This document shows positions 8,228 to 16,485 of a stretch of 64,000 bases of DNA, piece by piece; the first letter of the stretch is position 1; the number at the start of each line of letters is the position of its first letter. Below the pieces are notes generated by a model. That model had not been told where the DNA came from and did not search any database. It worked only from the letters and a program-made list of their open reading frames with translations. Where the stretch lies: contig NZ_JAJNDA010000012.1 of assembly GCF_021026295.1 (NCBI RefSeq), positions 1 to 64,000 of the forward strand, read 5' to 3'. A program made the position numbers and the translations under genes. Source of the stretch: Actinomycetospora soli (GTDB lineage: Bacteria; Actinomycetota; Actinomycetes; Mycobacteriales; Pseudonocardiaceae).

Positions 8228-8911
8228 GTGGTCGCCGCCGCCTACCGCTCCGGTCACGCCCGCGTCGTCGCGCTCCTCGAGGGCCTTCCCGACGACGGGT
8301 GGCGCCGGCCGGTGCCCGCCTGCCCGGACTGGACCGTGCGCGACCTCCTCGCGCACCTGGTCGGGACGTCCGCCGACGTCGCCGCCCGGCGGACGGCCGG
8401 CTTCGCGGGTCCGGACTGGACCGCCGGCCACGTCCGCGACCGGGCCGACGCCGACGTCGGGACCCTCCTCGCCGAGTGGGAGGAGAGTCTGCCGGCGACG
8501 GCGGAGGCGCTCGACGAGCGCCGGGTCCCCGCCGCCGTCGTCGGGGACCTGACCGTGCACGAGGGCGACCTCGTCGAGGCGCTCGGGGCGCCGCGGCCGC
8601 CCTGGGACGGGTGGGCGCCGACCGCCTCAGTGCTCGTCCGGCAGGTGGTGAAGGGCATCCGGGGGCCGCAGGCGCTGGTGGTGCGGGCCGGCGGGACCGA
8701 GTGGCGCAGCCCGGAGGACACGCGCGAGGACGTCGTCCGCAGCGTGTTGCGGGTCGACCTGTACGAGCTCTACCGCGGTCTGAGCAGCCGGCGCAGCCGG
8801 GCGCAGATGCGGGGCTGGGACTGGGAGGGCCCGACCGACCCGTGGGTCGACGGACTCCCGGTGCACGGCCCCCGTGACGACGAACAGCCGGTGCCCCCTC
8901 CTCCGGTCTGA
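8228..8911 (+). CDS. Maleylpyruvate isomerase-like (MDMPI / TIGR03083 type) protein
   Basis: 227 residues. [15 protein letters not shown] near residues 32-46 is the N-terminal signature of the mycothiol-dependent maleylpyruvate isomerase-like family, in which the histidine of AHL is a metal ligand. The C-terminal part ([18 protein letters not shown]) fits the family's second domain. The true substrate of such DinB-like proteins is usually unknown; some are mycothiol S-transferases. The GTG start is preceded by a -10-like CATCCT. The stop codon lies inside the hairpin at 8888-8925. Confidence 0.75.
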
Positions 8912-8944: not shown

Positions 8945-9295
8945 TCAGATCGGGAGCAGGCCCGTGATCGTCTCGACGATCGAGGAGGTCTCGGTGACGT
9001 CCGAGTTCTCGGTGCGGGTGTCGCCGTTGACGACGTCGCCGCCGGCCACGTTGTTCGCCGAGCCGATCTGGTTGCCGTTGAGGATGTCGCAGACGTTGCT
9101 GGCGTCGAGGGCCTGGTCGCCGCCCGTGGTGTCGCCGAGGCTACGGCCCGAGCCGTTCTCCGTGGAGGCGGCGACGGCGTTCGAGCAGCCCTGGGCGGCG
9201 TGGCCCGACTCGTGGGCGGTGGCCACCCCGGTGAGGGTGCCGAGGCCGGCGCCGACGATCAGGGTGCCGATGGCGGCGGAGCGGAAGATCGACAT
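8945..9295 (-). CDS. Array copy 1: small secreted two-cysteine Asn/Gly-rich protein
   Basis: 116 residues. MSIFRSAAIGTLIVGAGLGT and the following residues form a Sec signal peptide, with likely cleavage after VATA (residue 27). The mature protein has exactly two cysteines (C37 in CSN and C69 in CDILNGN), enclosing RSLGDTTGGDQ. After C69 comes an Asn/Gly-rich run, GNQIGSANNVAGGDVVNGDT, ending in TGLLPI. I know no characterised family with this pattern. The layout recalls chaplins and rodlins (small, secreted, two cysteines, N/G-rich, assembling on actinomycete surfaces), but the motifs differ. The ATG start is homologous to those of the other copies. Confidence 0.8.
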   Translation of the reverse strand: MSIFRSAAIGTLIVGAGLGTLTGVATAHESGHAAQGCSNAVAASTENGSGRSLGDTTGGDQALDASNVCDILNGNQIGSANNVAGGDVVNGDTRTENSDVTETSSIVETITGLLPI

Positions 9296-9479
9296 GGTGT
9301 CTCCTTGAGAGGTGGGCCCGGGACCGGGCCGCGAACCGTCCGGGATCGGGGCCCGGACGGGGAGGTCATCGGTGCGCGTCGCGATCGTCGGATCGCGTCG
9401 CGAGGGAAGCGGAGCGGCCGGCGGTGCCGGACCGCGCTCCGATGAACGACCGGGGTGCTCCCGCGCCGTCCGACCCGCG

Positions 9480-9500
9480 GGCCGACGCGTCGCGTCGGCC
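9480..9500 (-). terminator. Hairpin after array copy 2
   Basis: GGCCGACGC and GCGTCGGCC pair perfectly around a 3-base loop, 7 bases after the copy 2 stop codon. No T-run follows. Confidence 0.55.
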
Positions 9501-9507
9501 GTGGGAC

Positions 9508-9915
9508 TCAGAGCCCGAGCAGGTCGCCGAGGATCGGCAGGCCGCCGCCCGCGCCGCCGTCGACCGGGGCGGCCGGGACGGTGGTGGTGCTCTCCTCGGT
9601 CGTGGTGGTGTCGCTGGTGCGCGTGATGTCGGTCAGGTCGCCGTTGCGGATGTCGCCGCCGGCCACGTTGTTGCCCGACAGGACCTCGTTGCCGTTCGCG
9701 ATGTCGCAGAGGTTGTCGGCCGCGATGTCCTGGCTGCCACCGGTGGTGTCGCCGAGCGTGCTGCCGGCGCCGTTCTCGCTGGCGGCCTTGACGCTGTTGG
9801 AGCAGCTCTTGCCCGCGTCGCCGTGGTGGTCCCAGGCCAGCGCCGAGCCGGACATGGCGCCGAGGCCGGCGCCGACGACCACGGTCGCGAGAACGGTGTT
9901 GCGCAGGATCGACAT
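9508..9915 (-). CDS. Array copy 2: small secreted two-cysteine Asn/Gly-rich protein
   Basis: 135 residues starting MSILRN at the ATG 9915, with a GGGGGC ribosome-site-like stretch about 7 bases upstream. The signal peptide probably ends at SALA (residue 27). C38 (CSN) and C70 (CDIANGN) keep the array's 31-residue spacing, with STLGDTTGGSQD between them. The C-terminus is longer than in copy 1 and rich in Thr and Pro (TTTTEESTTTVPAAP) before a Gly/Leu end. Its upstream region carries the conserved element 10014-10048. Confidence 0.8.
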   Translation of the reverse strand: MSILRNTVLATVVVGAGLGAMSGSALAWDHHGDAGKSCSNSVKAASENGAGSTLGDTTGGSQDIAADNLCDIANGNEVLSGNNVAGGDIRNGDLTDITRTSDTTTTEESTTTVPAAPVDGGAGGGLPILGDLLGL

Positions 9916-10013
9916 TCTGATTGCCCCCGAAATGTGTCGGTCTGACGAAGAGCGCCGGTCCGCGGCAGTGCGCAGCACGGTCACATGGCGGTCAACGGAC
10001 GGCCCAGGCGGTG

Positions 10014-10048
10014 GTCACGGGACAATCACGACGATCCCCCGTTCGTGA
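10014..10048 (-). promoter_or_regulatory. Conserved upstream element of array copy 2
   Basis: On the plus strand GTCACG is followed after 5 bases by ATCACG. The inverted repeat TCACGA / TCGTGA encloses CGATCCCCCGT. The same arrangement, nearly base for base, occurs at 11792-11827 before copy 5. In both cases it begins about 100 bases from the start codon. This looks like a binding site for a shared regulator. Confidence 0.65.
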
Positions 10049-10127
10049 TCGGCGAATCGTTCCGCTACCCGATCGCCAATTTTGGAACACCTTTTCACAC
10101 ACATTCTTTCGAGTGGCGGAACGACGA

Positions 10128-10164
10128 CGGGCCGGCACCCGCCCCGGAGGCGGGTGCCGGCCCG
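10128..10164 (-). terminator. Strong hairpin after array copy 3
   Basis: CGGGCCGGCACCCGCC and its exact complement form a 16-bp stem around CCGGA, 18 bases after the copy 3 stop. The preceding plus-strand bases GAACGACGA plus the CGGGCCGGCACCC arm recur at the copy 8 terminator. Confidence 0.8.
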
Positions 10165-10182
10165 TGGCGCGGCGGGGAGCGG

Positions 10183-10521
10183 TCAGCCGACCGTCGAGGT
10201 GCTCGTCTCCGTGGTGTCGGTGGTGACGGTGCGGGTCACCGAGCTCGTGTCGCCGTTGACGACGTCGCCGCCGGCGACGTTGTTGGCGCTCGCGACCTTG
10301 TTGCCGTTGAGGATGTCGCAGGTGTTCGAGGCCGACAGGTCCTGCGCGCCGCCCTCCGTGTCGCCGAGGCTGCGGCCGGACGAGTTGCTGCTCTCGGCGG
10401 AGACGCCGTTCGAGCACCCGCCGTCGTGGTGCGACGCGTGGGCGCTGGCGACGCCGGCGGTGGACGCGAGGCCCGCACCCAGGATCGCGCTGGCGAGGAC
10501 GGTCTTGCGGAAGACGGACAT
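10183..10521 (-). CDS. Array copy 3: small secreted two-cysteine Asn/Gly-rich protein
   Basis: 112 residues, ATG at 10521. MSVFRKTVLASAILGAG begins the signal peptide, with probable cleavage after VASA (27). C36 and C68 have the standard spacing, with SSGRSLGDTEGGAQDLSASN between. GNKVASANNVAGGDVVNGDT follows, and the end is a Thr/Ser-rich tail (TVTTDTTETSTSTVG). It lacks the Leu-rich C-terminus of copies 1, 2 and 5. Confidence 0.8.
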   Translation of the reverse strand: MSVFRKTVLASAILGAGLASTAGVASAHASHHDGGCSNGVSAESSNSSGRSLGDTEGGAQDLSASNTCDILNGNKVASANNVAGGDVVNGDTSSVTRTVTTDTTETSTSTVG

Positions 10522-10657
10522 GGTGTGTGGACCCCCGATGACGTGGTTGGACGGGCCCGGGGAGCGCCAGGTGGCGGACCGGGTCCGACCGGTTCAACGG
10601 GTCCCGGGCGCCGGTCGTGACGACCATCGACCCGACGTCGCCCGAAGGTGGACACGA

Positions 10658-10696
10658 CGACGGCCGGCCCCCGGGATGCTCGGGGACCGGCCGTCG
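10658..10696 (-). terminator. Hairpin after array copy 4
   Basis: CGACGGCCGG and CCGGCCGTCG pair, extended by CCCCG/CGGGG after one position that is C/A on the plus strand. In the minus-strand transcript this position is a U-G wobble pair, so the stem is continuous only in that orientation, matching a terminator for copy 4 (stop at 10716). Confidence 0.75.
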
Positions 10697-10715
10697 GAGG
10701 TGGCGCGGGTCGGGC

Positions 10716-11096
10716 TCAGAACGGGAAGTTCGGGCCGAAGAACGAGTCGAAGGTCAGGGTGCGGTTCACCGTGGTCGTGCGGTTCACGGTGGTGGTGCGG
10801 GTGGTCGTCCGGGTGTTCCCGTTGACGATGTTGCCGCCCGCGATGTTGTTCCCGCTGCCGATCACGTTGCCGTTCCCGTTGCCGCACGAGTTCGAGGTGC
10901 GGATGGTCTGCGACCCACCGGTGGTGTCGCCGAGGCTGCGGCCGGAGGAGGTCTTCGAGACCGCGGAGACGTTGTTGGAGCAGGAGCTCGAGCCGGCCGA
11001 CGCATTCGGCGCGGCGGTCGCGATACCCGCGGTGGAACCGAGTCCGACACCGATGACGGCGGTGGCGAGAGCGGCGCGCGCAATGACGTTCTTCAT
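10716..11096 (-). CDS. Array copy 4: divergent secreted two-cysteine Asn/Gly-rich protein
   Basis: 126 residues, ATG at 11096. The N-terminus (MKNVIARAALATAVIGVG) differs from the MSxFRK type, and the signal peptide likely ends at IATA. C39 and C71 keep the spacing around SSGRSLGDTTGGSQ, but the second motif is CGNGNGNVIGSGNNIAGGN instead of CDILNGN. The tail has the Thr repeat RTTTVN twice and an aromatic end (DSFFGPNFPF). This is the most divergent of the six longer-spacing copies. Confidence 0.78.
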   Translation of the reverse strand: MKNVIARAALATAVIGVGLGSTAGIATAAPNASAGSSSCSNNVSAVSKTSSGRSLGDTTGGSQTIRTSNSCGNGNGNVIGSGNNIAGGNIVNGNTRTTTRTTTVNRTTTVNRTLTFDSFFGPNFPF

Positions 11097-11220
11097 GGTG
11101 GGTCCCCCCGGTGCGATGTGCCGGAGACGATGTCGTGCTCCGGACTCGTGCGGGGTATCGCCGCGTTCCGGCCGGCTGGTACGCGCATTTCCTGCGTTCC
11201 GCCGATCGTGTGACGGCACG

Positions 11221-11322
11221 AAAAAAAGCCGGACCCGGTCACCACGCCCTCGAGTGCGAGGGGAGCGAACCGGATGGCTCCCGGAGGAGCCGTCCGGCCT
11301 GGGCGTGGTGACCCGGTCCGGC
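11221..11322 (-). terminator. Intrinsic terminator after array copy 5, with T-run
   Basis: 22-base arms at 11228-11249 and 11301-11322 (GCCGGACCCGGTCACC... and its complement) pair with one mismatch. The enclosed 51 bases contain a second hairpin around GGCTCC/GGAGCC. On the plus strand seven A bases precede the left arm, so minus-strand RNA ends in seven U residues. This is the clearest Rho-independent terminator in the window. Confidence 0.88.
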
Positions 11323-11344
11323 GTCGTGCGGTGATCCCCGGAGA

Positions 11345-11692
11345 TCAGAGGGGGAGCAGGTCCAGGATCGTCTCGGAGGTCTCCGTCGAGGTCCGCGAGT
11401 CGTTGCGGATGTCGGTGTCGCCGTTGACGATGTCGCCGGCGGCCGCGTTGTTGCCGCTCAGGACCTCGTTGTCGTTGAGGATGTCGCAGGTGTTGGAGGC
11501 CGACAGGTCCTGGTCGCCACCGACGGTGTCGCCCAGGGTGCGGTCCGCACCGTTGCTGCTCTTGGCGGCGATGCCGTTGGAGCAGCCCTTGCCGGCGTCG
11601 CCGTGCTCGTGCGCCATGGCGACACCCGCGGTCGAGGCGAGCCCGGCGCCCAGGATGACGGTGGCGACGGCGGCCTTGCGGAACATCTGCAT
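11345..11692 (-). CDS. Array copy 5: small secreted two-cysteine Asn/Gly-rich protein
   Basis: 115 residues from the ATG at 11692, which has GGGGGA about 7 bases upstream (MQMFRKAAVATVILGAG). The signal peptide likely ends at VAMA (27). C37 and C69 have the standard spacing around ADRTLGDTVGGDQDLSASN. The motif CDILNDNEVLSGNNAAAGDI follows, and the end is ETILDLLPL, like copy 1 (TGLLPI). It has its own conserved upstream element and a T-run terminator. Confidence 0.8.
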   Translation of the reverse strand: MQMFRKAAVATVILGAGLASTAGVAMAHEHGDAGKGCSNGIAAKSSNGADRTLGDTVGGDQDLSASNTCDILNDNEVLSGNNAAAGDIVNGDTDIRNDSRTSTETSETILDLLPL

Positions 11693-11791
11693 CTTCGATT
11701 CCCCCGAATCGTGGAGCTTGCTCGGTCCGGCGGCGAAGGGAGTCGCTCGCCGGTCAGTCACAGTCGGCTCAACGCGAGGGGACGAACCGAG

Positions 11792-11827
11792 GTCACGGCT
11801 CCGTCACGACGTTCCCCCGTTCGTGAC
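11792..11827 (-). promoter_or_regulatory. Conserved upstream element of array copy 5
   Basis: Direct repeat GTCACG-N5-GTCACG, the second copy being part of the inverted repeat GTCACGA / TCGTGAC around CGTTCCCCCGT. It matches the copy 2 element over about 35 positions and sits at the same distance (about 100 bases) from the start codon. The rest of the 439-base gap 11693-12131 contains no gene that I can support. Confidence 0.65.
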
Positions 11828-12073
11828 GAAACGATCCGCTGACCTGCAGCGATACGTCGGGGATCGAGCCAGGTCTCCGCTGGACGCACGTGGTGGCGAT
11901 GACAGTGCGTCACCCTTCCGGGATCTTCAGGTGAACCTGCTCCGCGCCGGGAACCTCGCCTCGTGGGGCCCGCCTTCTCGCGAGGGGCACACCACGCATC
12001 CGCGGGCCGCCACGGACCTGCCCTGTGTGCACCTCGCGGACGGCGGCGGGCAGCCGCACCCCGGAACGACGAA

Positions 12074-12110
12074 ACGGCCGGCCCGGAGCGGTGAGCTCCG
12101 GACCGGCCGT
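12074..12110 (-). terminator. Hairpin after array copy 6
   Basis: ACGGCCGG/CCGGCCGT and CCGGAGC/GCTCCGG pair around GGTGA. The one plus-strand C/A mismatch is a U-G wobble in the minus-strand transcript. It lies about 20 bases after the copy 6 stop. Confidence 0.78.
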
Positions 12111-12131
12111 GGGTCGTGCGCGCGCTGCGAT

Positions 12132-12593
12132 CTAGCCGATCGGCGTGGTCGTCGTGCCCTGGGGCACCGAGGACGGCGCGGCGAACGTCTGCGCGGGGGC
12201 CGCCTGCTGCACCGGCTGGGCCTGCTGGACCTGCGGGGCGCTCGTGCCACCGAGCAGGCCGCCGAGGCTCTGACCCACCGACACCGACAGGTGGTTGCCG
12301 TTGAGGTTGTTCTTGACGTTGTCGTTCAGGATGTTGCAGACGTTCGACGTGATCGGGGCGTCGAGGACGTTGCCGATCCCGATGAGACCGTTGCCCTGCT
12401 TGTGACCGGTGCCGACGCCGTTGGAGCAGCTCGAGTCCACGTCGGTGCCGTCGTGGTGCTTCGAGTGGCCGTGGTGGCCGGAGTCGTGGTGGCCACCGGA
12501 GGGAGCGTCACCGGCGAAGGCCGCGCCGGCGGTCGTCACGAGGCCGGCGCCGATGATGGCGGACGTCAGCACGGTCTTGCGGAACATGGACAC
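12132..12593 (-). CDS. Array copy 6: secreted His-rich two-cysteine protein with Gln/Pro tail
   Basis: 153 residues. I chose the GTG at 12593 (V/MSMFRKTVLTSAIIGAG) because it aligns with the other copies and has AGGAGA about 6 bases upstream. After the signal peptide (end near AFAG) comes a His-rich stretch, GGHHDSGHHGHSKHHDGTD, a candidate metal site. C56 and C86 are two residues closer than in copies 1-5. The segment between them is KQGNGLIGIGNVLDAPITSN, which defines a subgroup with copy 7. The tail PQVQQAQPVQQAAPAQ is low-complexity and unique to this copy. Confidence 0.8.
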   Translation of the reverse strand: MSMFRKTVLTSAIIGAGLVTTAGAAFAGDAPSGGHHDSGHHGHSKHHDGTDVDSSCSNGVGTGHKQGNGLIGIGNVLDAPITSNVCNILNDNVKNNLNGNHLSVSVGQSLGGLLGGTSAPQVQQAQPVQQAAPAQTFAAPSSVPQGTTTTPIG

Positions 12594-12695
12594 GCTGTTC
12601 TCCTGCTCGCAGAACTCGGGGTGCGGGCCGCGACGAGCGCGGGCCGGAGCGTTCGGCTCCGGCCCGCGGGCCCGTTGTCTCACTGTCACCACCGG

Positions 12696-12740
12696 CTCGT
12701 CGGTACGAGCGGACGATCGGGGGTCGTCCGCGACGACGAG
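12696..12740 (-). terminator. Hairpin after array copy 7
   Basis: GCGGACGA and TCGTCCGC pair around a 7-base loop, enclosed by CTCGTCG/CGACGAG. It lies about 12 bases after the copy 7 stop and before the copy 6 start. Confidence 0.6.
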
Positions 12741-12751
12741 CCGCGAGGGCC

Positions 12752-13072
12752 TCAGAGGAGGTCGAGCGCCAGGGTGTTGCCGTTCAGGTTGTCCTTCACG
12801 TTGTCGTTCAGGATGTTGCAGATGTTCGAGGTGATCGGGGCGTCCGCGACGTTGCCGATCCCGAGCAGACCGCCGTTGCCCTGCTTGTCGCCGGTGCCGA
12901 CGCCGTTGCTGCAGCTGTTGTCGACCTTCGTCACCGACTTGTGGTCGCCGTGCGACTTGTGGTGGTGACCGCCGTCGTGGCCGCAGTCGCTCGCGAAGGC
13001 CGAGCCGGCCGTGGACGCGAGGCCCGCGCCGATGATGGCGGTGGTCAGGACGGTCTTGCGGAACGTGGACAC
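12752..13072 (-). CDS. Array copy 7: secreted His-rich two-cysteine protein
   Basis: 106 residues from the GTG at 13072 (V/MSTFRKTVLTTAIIGAG). The signal peptide ends near AFAS. A His/Lys-rich stretch follows (CGHDGGHHHKSHGDHK), including an extra cysteine, C30, not found in the other copies. The core cysteines are C54 and C85, with KQGNGGLLGIGNVADAPITSN between, and CNILNDNVKDNLNGN follows. It is the closest relative of copy 6 and the shortest member. Confidence 0.8.
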   Translation of the reverse strand: MSTFRKTVLTTAIIGAGLASTAGSAFASDCGHDGGHHHKSHGDHKSVTKVDNSCSNGVGTGDKQGNGGLLGIGNVADAPITSNICNILNDNVKDNLNGNTLALDLL

Positions 13073-13326
13073 GCTTGGTCTCTCCCCTGGTCGTCTGGAC
13101 ACGCGCGCGACCGGACGGGTCGCACACCGTGCGTCGCGACGCGGTGACGCATCACGACTCGGTGACTCCAACGCCTCGATCGAGTGAAGGTCACGGTCGG
13201 ATGTCGATCCGGGTGACGACGGCGTCCACGATCGGGTCTGGAGCAGGGGATCCGCGCACGATGTTCACCCGCTCGGAGCAACAACGGCAGCGACGACCGC
13301 GGGAGAAACGGTGTCGGGAACGACGA

Positions 13327-13369
13327 CGGGCCGGCACCCGCGGGAGAGGTCTCCCGGGGTGCCGGCCCG
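13327..13369 (-). terminator. Strong hairpin after array copy 8
   Basis: CGGGCCGGCACCC/GGGTGCCGGCCCG encloses CGGGAG/CTCCCG, 90 bases after the copy 8 stop. Its left side repeats that of the copy 3 terminator, including the preceding GAACGACGA. The surrounding gap 13073-13459 (387 bases) otherwise holds only the presumed copy 7 promoter region, where I see no clear motif. Confidence 0.78.
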
Positions 13370-13459
13370 TGGTCGTGCGGGTCGTGCGAGGTCGTACCGG
13401 TCGTGCGGTCGCGGCCGTCGGTGGCCGCTGACTGCCTGCCCGCAGTCGGGTGGCTCGGC

Positions 13460-13864
13460 TCAGCCGGCGGCGCCACCGATCGTGCTGGTGATGTCCTCGG
13501 TGACCGTCGAGGACGAGGTCCGCGTCGTGGTGTCGCCGTTGGTCACGTCGCCGAGCAGCGAGATGTTGTTGTTCGACAGCACCTCGTTGCCGGTCAGGAT
13601 GTGGCAGAGGTTCGAGGCCGACAGGTCCTGGTCGCCACCGGTGGTGTCGCCCAGCGAGCGGCCGGAGCCGTTCTTCGACTCGGCGGCGACGTTGTTGCTG
13701 CAGCCGCTGTCCGAGGAGTTGCTGTAGTGCTTGTCGTGGCTGCCGTGGCCACCGTGGTGCCCGCCGTCGCCCGGGTCGTCCCCGGCGAACGCCGCACCCG
13801 ACATCGAGCCGAGGCCGGCACCGATGATCGCCGTCGCCAACACGGTCTTGCGGAACATCGACAC
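13460..13864 (-). CDS. Array copy 8: secreted His/Ser-rich two-cysteine Asn/Gly-rich protein
   Basis: 134 residues if started at the GTG 13864 (V/MSMFRKTVLATAIIGAG), which has GGGGGA 6 bases upstream. The ATG at 13870 abuts that ribosome site and is less likely. The signal peptide ends near AFAG. A His-rich stretch (GGHHGGHGSHDKHYSN) is followed by C55 and C87 with the standard spacing, GSGRSLGDTTGGDQDLSASN between them, then CHILTGNEVLSNNN. It combines the His-rich linker of copies 6 and 7 with the core of copies 1-5, so it may resemble the ancestral form. Confidence 0.8.
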   Translation of the reverse strand: MSMFRKTVLATAIIGAGLGSMSGAAFAGDDPGDGGHHGGHGSHDKHYSNSSDSGCSNNVAAESKNGSGRSLGDTTGGDQDLSASNLCHILTGNEVLSNNNISLLGDVTNGDTTTRTSSSTVTEDITSTIGGAAG

Positions 13865-14030
13865 GTTCATTCCCCCATGGAAGTCGAGGTGTCCACGGGC
13901 CCACCGGTCGTGGGTCCGCGCCATCACGATCGACCAACGCGGGGGGACGGCGGTGGGGCACGGCTTGTCCGGTTACTTCATTCGTTCGAGCGTTCCTCGC
14001 TCGCCGGGCTCAAGCCTTACGCCGATCGCA

Positions 14031-15099: not shown

Positions 15100-16485
15100 G
15101 TGGCCCAGGACATCGTCCCCATCACCCTCGCGCTGACGGGCGGGGACCTGGTGACCCTCTGGGCGCCGCGGTGGCGCGAGGACGGTGAGGAGTGGGAGGC
15201 GTTCCTCGGCGACGACGACCACGTCTTCGCCTTCGCCGACGCCGCCGACCTGGCCGCCTGGATCCGCACCAGCGACGCCGACGGACTCGACCACGACCTC
15301 GTCGACCACCCCGCGTGGCCCGTGGTCGGCGGGCTGTCGGTCGACGAGCTGACGCCGGAGGACATCCAGCGCTACGACGTCGTGGGCGTCCCCGAGCTGG
15401 TCGCCGAGGAGCCGGACACCTTCTCGGTCGACGACCTCGCGGAGATCACCGCGATGACCCGTTCGCTGGCCGACGTGTGCGACCTCGAGGGCGTGCTCGC
15501 GGTCCTCGACTCCACGCCGGCCTTCGCCGCGCTGCCGGACGGCCTCGCCGTCTTCGGCGGCCGCGACGGCGCGGCGCTGTGGGCCGAGCTGGCCGACGTG
15601 GTCGCCGAGCGCTGGGACGAGGTCGTCGACGCCCTCGACGCCCTCGTGCGCGTCCCCGAGGTCGACGTCGAGCTGGCGGCCAAGCTGCGCGCCACGGCGA
15701 CGCCGCCGGCCGGGGCCGACGACGACGAGACCGATCCCGACGACGGGTCGGGCGGCTCGGGCAGCGCCGAGGACGCCGAGAACCACCCGGCGGACCCGGC
15801 CGCCGTCGTGCAGGACCCGCAGGACTCCGCCGTGGACGGCCCGCTCGCCGACGCCCCGGAGGAGCTGCGGTCCGACGCCGCCGGGGAGTCGGTGCGCACC
15901 GACCTCGTCGACGCCGCCGAGGAGCCCGAGCCGGGGTTCTGGGAGGAGGTCGGCATCGACCCGATCTCGATCCTGTCGGCCGAGGGCGAGGTCATCACGC
16001 TGCGCTGCTTCCTCGACGACGAGCCCGTCTTCCTCGGGCGCGACGGCCGCATCGAGGTCTTCTCGAGCAGCCGCGCGCTGCGGACGTGGATCGCCGGCGA
16101 GGGGTCCGAGGGCCACGACCTCGCGGAGGTCTCGACCTGGGCCGACGTGATGACGGCGGCGGTCGGCGGTGACCTCGAGGTGGAGGTGGCCCCGGAGAAC
16201 CGCTACGTGCTCGTCGGGCTCGGCGAGGACCTCCTCGAGGGTCCCGAGGCCGTCGACCCCTCCCAGCTCGAGCTCGCCGTCGAACTGCTCCTCGACGCCG
16301 CCGACTGGGCGGGCGACACGCTCACGCGGGAGGCCCTCGCCCCATCCGAGGCGCTCGGCTGGCTGGTGTCGTTCGTGCTGCGGCCCGACCCGAACCGGCT
16401 CACGCCGTCGCCGCCGTTCACGCGCGAGGCGGCCCGGTGGCGTGAGCTCGAGGACCGGCTGGTGGGACGCCTGCGTCAGCCGTGA
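15100..16485 (+). CDS. Uncharacterised acidic actinobacterial protein with two similar halves
   Basis: 461 residues, strongly acidic. The N-terminal (about 1-190) and C-terminal (about 280-460) parts look related. Each begins with a segment about controlling charge and hydrophobic runs (VTLWAPRW and VITLRCFLDD), then a DG/DD turn, then a tryptophan helix (DLAAWIRTSDADGLDHDL and ALRTWIAGEGSEGHDLAE). A disordered Asp/Glu/Pro linker covers about 195-275. No signal peptide, membrane segment or catalytic motif is visible. I do not recognise a named family. The start is GTG with GGAGG at ideal spacing. Confidence 0.85.
   Translation: MAQDIVPITLALTGGDLVTLWAPRWREDGEEWEAFLGDDDHVFAFADAADLAAWIRTSDADGLDHDLVDHPAWPVVGGLSVDELTPEDIQRYDVVGVPELVAEEPDTFSVDDLAEITAMTRSLADVCDLEGVLAVLDSTPAFAALPDGLAVFGGRDGAALWAELADVVAERWDEVVDALDALVRVPEVDVELAAKLRATATPPAGADDDETDPDDGSGGSGSAEDAENHPADPAAVVQDPQDSAVDGPLADAPEELRSDAAGESVRTDLVDAAEEPEPGFWEEVGIDPISILSAEGEVITLRCFLDDEPVFLGRDGRIEVFSSSRALRTWIAGEGSEGHDLAEVSTWADVMTAAVGGDLEVEVAPENRYVLVGLGEDLLEGPEAVDPSQLELAVELLLDAADWAGDTLTREALAPSEALGWLVSFVLRPDPNRLTPSPPFTREAARWRELEDRLVGRLRQP

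What the first reader, a model, noticed from the sequence alone, without database searches (positions are those of the whole stretch)
8945..13864. Tandem array of eight secreted two-cysteine, Asn/Gly-rich proteins
Seen: eight minus-strand genes in 4.9 kb encode 106-153-residue proteins with the same signal peptide type (MSxFRKTVLATAIIGAGL) and a core of CSN, then 29-31 residues, then a second Cys followed by xILNxN and an NN-rich run. Six share RSLGDTxGGxQ between the cysteines; copies 6 and 7 have KQGNGxxGIGNVxDAPITSN instead. Known: chaplins and rodlins of streptomycetes are small secreted two-Cys or N/G-rich proteins that assemble into surface fibrils, but their sequence motifs differ. Inference: a distinct family of surface, possibly amyloid-forming or disulfide-linked, proteins in an actinomycete.
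Basis: partly seen in the sequence, partly recalled or inferred. Interest (0 to 1): 0.85.

Follow-up and report, generated by a model that had tools for sequence, protein, structure and literature searches.

The report
Developmental coat-like protein array in Actinomycetospora
Eight neighbouring genes in a soil bacterium make small secreted proteins of an unnamed family, and several carry the kind of switch that streptomycetes use for the proteins coating their aerial filaments and spores, so they are probably a home-grown coat.

Summary
In detail: eight minus-strand genes (8945-13864) encode 106-153 aa secreted proteins with a Cys pair 29-31 residues apart. The genome is an Actinomycetospora. 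Pfam, NCBIfam and PDB sequences give no relative. The core was found in 8 of 18 Actinomycetospora genomes and, outside the genus, once marginally in about 570 genomes. The array sits between upp and an alpha/beta-hydrolase gene, which are adjacent in 8 of 8 array-less species tested. New evidence comes from promoters: copies 2, 5 and 7, and many orthologues including those of copy 8, carry CGTGAC-N16/17-CGTTG[AG], close to the published sigma-BldN site (CGTAAC-N16-CGTTGA); BldN drives chaplins and rodlins. An RRRNGAA box lies exactly 21 nt upstream in 16 of 27 array promoters and 5 of 6 Streptomyces chaplin promoters. All seven Actinomycetospora genomes searched encode a BldN-like factor. Array-less species have the CGTAAC form before a second two-Cys array instead. 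Best reading: a lineage-specific, hydrophilic, Asn/Gly-rich sheath protein set wired into the BldN programme. Chaplin homology is not established, AlphaFold found no fold, about half the upstream regions lack the promoter, and surface location and amyloid formation are untested.

The parts
13460..13864 (-). copy 8 (first of the array): 134 aa secreted two-Cys protein, GTG start, His-rich linker, RSLGDTTGGDQ type
   Evidence: best matches 72-78% identical in 4 close genomes
12752..13072 (-). copy 7: 106 aa, KQGNG...APITSNICNILNDN type, third Cys near the mature N-terminus
12132..12593 (-). copy 6: 153 aa, KQGNG type, Gln/Pro/Ala-rich tail
11345..11692 (-). copy 5: 115 aa, RTLGDTVGGDQ type
   Evidence: best matches 71-83% identical in 4 close genomes
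10716..11096 (-). copy 4: 126 aa, RSLGDTTGGSQ type, other signal peptide, basic (pI 11.3), ends FFGPNFPF
10183..10521 (-). copy 3: 112 aa, RSLGDTEGGAQ type
9508..9915 (-). copy 2: 135 aa, STLGDTTGGSQ type
   Evidence: the ATG at 9915 lies one codon before the translation
8945..9295 (-). copy 1: 116 aa, RSLGDTTGGDQ type; the copy that lies between 2 and 1 in four relatives (M[FL]RKTL start) is missing here
13935..13983 (-). imperfect BldN-type promoter of copy 8: box GAATGAA, -35 CGTGCC (one base off the array form), CGTTG
   Evidence: loose composite pattern
13168..13195 (-). BldN-type promoter of copy 7: CGTGAC-N16-CGTTGG, without the 21-nt box
13265..13280 (-). exact match to the BldM-WhiI site TGnnCCGnnCGGGTGA; 0-2 mismatches about 200 nt before the start in 7 of 7 upstream regions of copy-7 counterparts
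   Evidence: consensus from PMC4125116
11769..11818 (-). BldN-type promoter of copy 5: box GGGGGAACG, then CGTGAC-N17-CGTTGA 21 nt on
9992..10040 (-). BldN-type promoter of copy 2: box variant GGGGGATCG, then CGTGAC-N16-CGTTGA
8228..8911 (+). MDMPI_N-domain gene with the array's distribution: beside the array in 6 of 6 array-bearing relatives tested, not found in the metG-upp-hydrolase stretch of 8 array-less ones

Best explanation
The array is a lineage-specific set of developmental surface-coat proteins of Actinomycetospora that works like the chaplin/rodlin sheath of Streptomyces. Shown from sequence: eight genes for proteins with signal peptides; one family; one locus; promoters of the sigma-BldN type at copies 2, 5 and 7 and, imperfectly, 8; a BldN-like sigma factor with a DUF5667 neighbour as in Streptomyces. 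Inferred: when aerial hyphae and spores form, the BldN-like factor, helped by an activator at the box 21 nt upstream, switches on the copies; the proteins leave through Sec; the Cys pair closes into an intramolecular disulfide (two long paralogues lack both cysteines together); the Asn/Gly/Asp/Ser/Thr-rich segment then polymerises on the wall into a polar, cross-beta type fibril or mat.
For: Promoters: 27 of 52 array upstream regions have CGTGAC-N16/17-CGTTG[AG] against 0.09% of simulated regions; none in the other 59 kb of the window. Two copies missed by my ORF filter were checked later: one has it, with the box (28 of 54). Published BldN site: CGTAAC-N16-CGTTGA (PMC2375139, passage); BldN drives chaplin and rodlin genes (PMC4125116, PMC4255298, passages). 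RRRNGAA lies exactly 21 nt before the -35 in 5 of 6 chaplin and 16 of 27 array promoters; of 32 offsets only one other (25, five array promoters) has any. Of 35 genome hits in four genomes, 30 were inspected: box at 5 of 8 array sites, 0 of 22 others. BldN-like sigma at 57-60% identity in 7 of 7 Actinomycetospora searched; DUF5667 neighbour here and in one Streptomyces. Six array-less genomes have CGTAAC-N16-CGTTG[AG] before a second two-Cys array, five array-bearing genomes do not; its profile gives 7-10 matches in five array-less and 2-5 in five array-bearing genomes. Cys-less paralogues.
Against: Homology to chaplins is not established (hhalign probability 1.1% for the LGDT type with 5 of 100 column shuffles as high, 0.55% for the copy 6/7 type, not shuffled). 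The mature proteins are hydrophilic. AlphaFold gave pLDDT 46 and no fold, which neither supports nor excludes fibrils. 25 of 52 upstream regions, among them copies 1, 3, 4, 6 and 8 here, lack the strict promoter; the 27 hits come from about five groups of counterparts and are not independent. The -35 differs from the published consensus at one base, the spacer is 16 or 17, and the last base is A or G. CGTGAC-N15-17-CGTTGA also occurs 7 times elsewhere in the own genome. The BldM-WhiI pattern at up to one mismatch is at chance for the whole window. The second array's lead promoter lacks the 21-nt box, 0 of 12 A6 upstream regions fit, and 13 of 19 chaplin upstream regions do not fit. Ten of 18 species have no array core. 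The chaplin pattern was drawn from the same 19 regions in which it was counted.
Confidence: 0.6

Rival explanations
1. They are true chaplins that diverged beyond recognition: the GGDQ..[AP]xN.C segment is the chaplin core QVPVxxPVNVCGN with a shortened middle.
For: In array copies of two relatives the segment reads GGDQVLAPINACDILNGN or GAIPVNVCDVANDN, near GGNQVVAPITAPINVCGNAV of chaplin-type repeats outside Streptomyces. The diverged array set against chaplins scores above 100 of 100 column shuffles.
Against: hhalign probability is only 16% for that set, 1.1% for the LGDT type and 0.55% for the copy 6/7 type; the Asn-rich segment after the second Cys has no evident chaplin counterpart; PF03777 does not hit.
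Confidence: 0.15
2. They are secreted matrix or adhesion proteins of vegetative hyphae or biofilm, with expression not tied to aerial development.
For: Hydrophilic, mostly acidic composition rich in Ser/Thr; 25 of 52 upstream regions lack the BldN-type promoter.
Against: BldN-type promoters, many with the 21-nt box, at several copies in seven genomes.
Confidence: 0.15
3. They are small secreted effectors in competition with other microbes (bacteriocin-like) or decoys for phages, diversified as an array.
For: Small, secreted, disulfide-capable, multi-copy, present in one part of the genus only.
Against: Most copies have a counterpart at the same place in relatives instead of rapid turnover, though places 6 and 7 vary; no immunity, maturation or export gene recognised among the neighbours examined (metG, upp, MDMPI_N gene, hydrolase); no match of copy 3 in phage records; developmental promoters.
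Confidence: 0.05
4. They bind metal through the His-rich linkers and the Cys pair (scavenging or storage).
For: 6-9 His in the mature copies 6, 7 and 8.
Against: Copies 1-5 have 0-3 His; the linker varies in length; the conserved part is the core.
Confidence: 0.05

Closest known systems
Chaplins (Pfam PF03777, ChpA-C), Streptomyces
   Same: Small, secreted, multi-copy (eight in S. coelicolor, PMC5314377); BldN-driven (PMC4125116); 6 of 19 upstream regions have the CGTrrC-N16-CGTTrM core, 5 of these with a box exactly 21 nt upstream as in the array
   Different: No profile match; hydrophilic where chaplin domains are hydrophobic; Asn-rich segment after the second Cys; by reading, no C-terminal sortase signal in the eight
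Rodlins RdlA/RdlB, Streptomyces
   Same: 131 and 133 aa sheath proteins under BldN; RdlB forms amyloid through a largely polar segment, its aggregation-prone hydrophobic stretch not being the driver (PMC5314377, passages)
   Different: No sequence comparison with rodlins was run here; obvious rodlins were reported only in streptomycetes (PMC4255298, passage)
Second two-Cys array of Actinomycetospora (alignment A5: CNVTGGSAEANGG...QAPIGGANxxNIVCNDILNDN)
   Same: Secreted tandem proteins with a comparable Cys pair and CNxILNDN motif; the copy 6/7 set matches it with probability 53%, above 100 of 100 shuffles; CGTAAC-type BldN site at its head in array-less species
   Different: Other core sequence; slightly hydrophobic core (GRAVY +0.28); in 10 of 10 Actinomycetospora genomes sampled, with weaker matches in two other genera; no Pfam or NCBIfam hit over a cut-off for the three own copies

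Membership tests
Chaplin (PF03777) | match to the ChpA-C profile over its cut-off | tested here: not met
   0 in the own genome (the control genomes rang nowhere, but one search found the family in 21 of 118 class genomes); none of the 8 proteins hits PF03777 at E 1
Chaplin (PF03777) | profile-profile relation to chaplin domains | tested here: inconclusive
   probability 0.8% (all 56), 1.1% (LGDT type), 0.55% (copy 6/7 type), 16% (diverged set); shuffles reaching the score 4, 5, not run, 0 of 100
Chaplin (PF03777) | hydrophobic domain | tested here: not met
   core GRAVY mean -0.33 (n 56, range -0.85 to 0.34) against +0.18 (n 36)
Chaplin (PF03777) | assembly into amyloid on aerial hyphae | not testable with these tools
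   needs purified protein and imaging
sigma-BldN regulon | promoter CGTAAC-N16-CGTTGA | tested here: inconclusive
   CGTGAC-N16/17-CGTTG[AG] in 27 of 52 array upstream regions: one base off in the -35, spacer 16 or 17; the CGTAAC form stands before the second array in six array-less genomes
sigma-BldN regulon | a BldN-like sigma factor with its neighbour rsbN in the genome | tested here: met
   57-60% identity in 7 of 7 Actinomycetospora searched; DUF5667 neighbour in the own genome (82) and in Streptomyces G057 (96). A direct BLASTP of these two neighbours aligned nothing meaningful. Reciprocal best hits were not tested
Rodlin | sequence relation to RdlA/RdlB | not tested
   no rodlin sequence was fetched; no Pfam or NCBIfam hit over a cut-off

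The most novel reading that the evidence does not exclude
Actinomycetospora has swapped the coat protein controlled by BldN during its own radiation: one part of the genus puts a slightly hydrophobic two-Cys array behind a CGTAAC-type BldN promoter; the other has, at a new site, a hydrophilic Asn/Gly-rich array, at most distantly related, with CGTGAC-type promoters, while its copy of the first array lacks the promoter and has fewer members. The coat is interchangeable while its regulator is kept, and polar, curli-like fibrils can stand in for chaplins. The direction of the swap is open, as the tree is unrooted.
Probability: 0.35. Interest if true: 0.78.

Novelty: new variant of a known kind. 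Interest (0 to 1): 0.62.

Why it matters
How spore-forming actinomycetes outside Streptomyces build an aerial coat is largely open: chaplins and rodlins are patchy, while BldN was reported in morphologically complex genera generally (PMC4255298, passages). An unnamed protein family with chaplin-type promoter architecture would show that the developmental switch is conserved while the coat proteins are swapped, and it gives a concrete, testable list of coat proteins plus a natural contrast between related species with and without the array.

Tried and rejected
AlphaFold on copy 3 with 34 sequences gave pLDDT 46, pTM 0.14, so no fold search was run; the second structure job was not used. PDB sequence profile: none. 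Copy 3 against phage records: none. The search for related loci failed with all eight and with five gave three named records. A first hhalign run timed out without output and was repeated without and with shuffles.

Considered and rejected: recent tandem duplication (copies 1-5 and 8 match relatives better than each other; copies 6 and 7 are exceptions, and for copy 2 in G007 and copy 3 in G015 the best match is a copy-5 counterpart). The A6 family (NxCxNxVPVNVLG) was examined as a possible core coat: 70 of 200 Pseudonocardiaceae genomes, 20 of 46 genera, but 0 of 12 of its upstream regions fit the promoter pattern. My first BldN-like pattern fitted 1 of 19 chaplin upstream regions; I loosened it after reading them and recounted, so that count is post hoc. 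A weak match in G336, another genus (E 8e-4, 34 positions), was looked at in the fetched stretch, where my filter showed no signal-peptide ORF with four or more Asn. My ORF filter missed one array copy each in G016 and G010 (seen): the set of 56 proteins and 52 upstream regions is therefore not complete; the two are given. The A3 searches scored at most 18 first-look candidates per genome and the A5/A6 searches 24, so absence and copy counts are lower bounds. The original BldN paper PMC94633 is not held.
Full report
Check of the observation. The window holds eight minus-strand ORFs at 8945-9295, 9508-9915, 10183-10521, 10716-11096, 11345-11692, 12132-12593, 12752-13072 and 13460-13864. Third-position GC is 93-98%. 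They align with 14 invariant columns. The LGDT type and the copy 6/7 type are one family by profile comparison (probability 97.5%, E 6e-12).

Where it is. Profile A1 finds 14 matches in the 6.5 Mb own genome, eight of them the array. Of 41 genomes (own, 17 of the same genus, 23 of other genera) the 18 of this genus match and the 23 others do not, but in ten of the 18 the matches are signal peptides or other families: with the mature core alone (A3, 56 proteins) 8 of 18 genus members match. Of 297 family genomes the only other match is G336 at E 8e-4; of 296 class genomes only the own one matches. These two searches scored at most 18 candidates per genome. Named records are Actinomycetospora sp. 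NBRC 106378, A. termitidis and A. chiangmaiensis. No Pfam or NCBIfam family passes a curated cut-off, and no PDB sequence matches at E 1.

Evolution of the locus. The flanking genes metG and the alpha/beta-hydrolase gene were found in 15 of 15 genomes examined. In the own genome and six array-bearing relatives an MDMPI_N gene and the array lie between upp and the hydrolase gene; in 8 of 8 array-less species the alignments of upp and the hydrolase end about 30-90 nt apart, with no MDMPI_N match in the stretch. G014 (array on a short contig), G004 and G008 were not tested. A tree of metG, upp and hydrolase proteins puts the eight array-less species in one clan with support 1.000; it is unrooted, so one gain or one loss fits equally. 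The order 8, 7, 6, 5, 4, 3, 2, (extra copy), 1 recurs by position and signal peptide in G001 and G003; G007 has LGGx-type proteins at places 7 and 6, G015 lacks copy 3, and the cores at places 6 and 7 differ between species. The own genome lacks the extra copy.

Promoters. The 52 upstream regions (seven genomes) show a two-part element 96-124 nt before the start. CGTGAC-N16/17-CGTTG[AG] occurs in 27 of 52 against 0.09% of simulated regions; in the window it stands before copies 2, 5 and 7 and nowhere in the other 59 kb. Copy 8 has an imperfect form, CGTGCC, with the box. Of two copies missed by my ORF filter, one has element and box, one neither. The published BldN site is CGTAAC-N16-CGTTGA (PMC2375139, passage), and sigma-BldN drives chaplin and rodlin genes (PMC4125116 and PMC4255298, passages). 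In 19 chaplin upstream regions extracted from 30 fetched loci, 6 have CGT[AG][AG]C-N16-CGTT[AG][AC] (pattern refined after reading these regions). RRRNGAA lies exactly 21 nt before the -35 in 5 of those 6 and in 16 of the 27 array promoters; of 32 offsets the only other with any is 25 (5 array promoters). Of 35 hits of CGTGAC-N15-17-CGTTGA in four genomes (9, 8, 13 and 5; control pattern 1, 0, 2 and 1), 30 were inspected: the box is at 5 of 8 array sites and 0 of 22 others. Copy 7 and its counterparts have no such box but have a BldM-WhiI-like site TGnnCCGnnCGGGTGA (PMC4125116, passage) with 0-2 mismatches in 7 of 7 (0 or 1 in six); two of the other 45 regions also have one at two mismatches, and its count in the window is at chance. 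The hits belong to about five groups of counterparts and are not independent.

Regulator. In the own genome the next gene encodes a DUF5667 protein, as does the neighbour of bldN in Streptomyces G057, although a direct BLASTP of the two aligned nothing meaningful. The gene beside bldN is described as rsbN, very divergent between genera (PMC4255298, passage).

A second array. Family A5 (14 proteins, three from the own contig C22) has a similar Cys pair and a CNxILNDN motif. Its profile matches 10 of 10 Actinomycetospora sampled, with 7-10 matches in five array-less and 2-5 in five array-bearing genomes (counts include partial and signal-only matches, one of the own five is copy 7 of the first array, and eight genus members were not in the sample). 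At its head, array-less genomes G004, G005, G006, G009, G012 and G017 have CGTAAC-N16-CGTTG[AG]; in G002 the locus held does not reach the head of the array; the loci of five array-bearing genomes (G000, G001, G003, G007, G015) have no such site on the coding strand. This suggests that the two arrays take turns under BldN; it is an inference from DNA alone.

Structure and chemistry. Mature array proteins have mean GRAVY -0.52 (n 56), chaplin domains +0.18 (n 36), A5 cores +0.28 (n 15). Two long proteins elsewhere, one in the own genome and one in G003, carry the core without any cysteine, which fits a dispensable disulfide. AlphaFold gave no fold. RdlB forms amyloid through a largely polar segment (PMC5314377, passages), so hydrophilicity does not exclude fibrils.

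Relation to chaplins. Diverged array copies read GGDQVLAPINACDILNGN, reminiscent of GGNQVVAPITAPINVCGNAV in chaplin-type repeats. Profile comparison: 16% for the diverged set (0 of 100 shuffles as high), 1.1% for the LGDT type (5 of 100), 0.8% for all 56 (4 of 100), 0.55% for the copy 6/7 type (not shuffled). Membership is therefore not claimed.

Literature. Papers holding both 'chaplin' and 'Actinomycetospora': 0; 'Pseudonocardiaceae' and 'chaplin': 2, seen in the listing only, neither on this subject by title. No description of this family was seen in these searches; only this open library was searched.

Verdict. A real, unnamed, apparently genus-restricted protein array; most likely a developmental coat working like the chaplin/rodlin sheath; new variant of a known kind.

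Noticed in passing
L127 713-3827 (G009), L048 168-1500 (own contig C22), L130, L136: A second unnamed tandem array of secreted two-Cys proteins (CNVTGGSAEANGG...QAPIGGANxxNIVCNDILNDN), led in six array-less species by a CGTAAC-N16-CGTTG[AG] promoter.
   Followed up: partly
L045 845-1156, L046 1003-1308, L047 750-1094 (own contigs C68, C67, C44); also L049, L050, L128, L129, L131, L132: Unnamed secreted family with PxNxCxNxVPVNVLGVQVPVQD and a later Cys, chaplin- or rodlin-like in flavour, matching 70 of 200 Pseudonocardiaceae genomes.
   Followed up: partly
L040 7979-9385 (own contig C4); a like ORF in L041 (G003): A 468-aa secreted protein that begins with a cysteine-free version of the array core, followed by Phe/Pro/Gly and acidic repeats.
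   Followed up: partly
window 8228-8911 (+): The MDMPI_N gene between upp and the array shares the array's presence and absence at this locus in 14 relatives, as if gained or lost with it.
   Followed up: no
L178 and L157, position 1501 (own contig C11 and G003): An identical CGTGACCGTTAAAACGCCACTTCGTTGA site is kept in two species away from the array, without the 21-nt box; one neighbouring ORF looks like a thiamine-diphosphate enzyme (by reading, not searched).
   Followed up: no
window 15100-16485 (+): A 461-aa acidic protein near the hydrolase gene has no Pfam match at E 0.01.
   Followed up: no
window 12453-12530, 12930-12990, 13700-13790 (-), approximate: His-rich linkers between signal peptide and core in copies 6, 7 and 8 only.
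   Followed up: no
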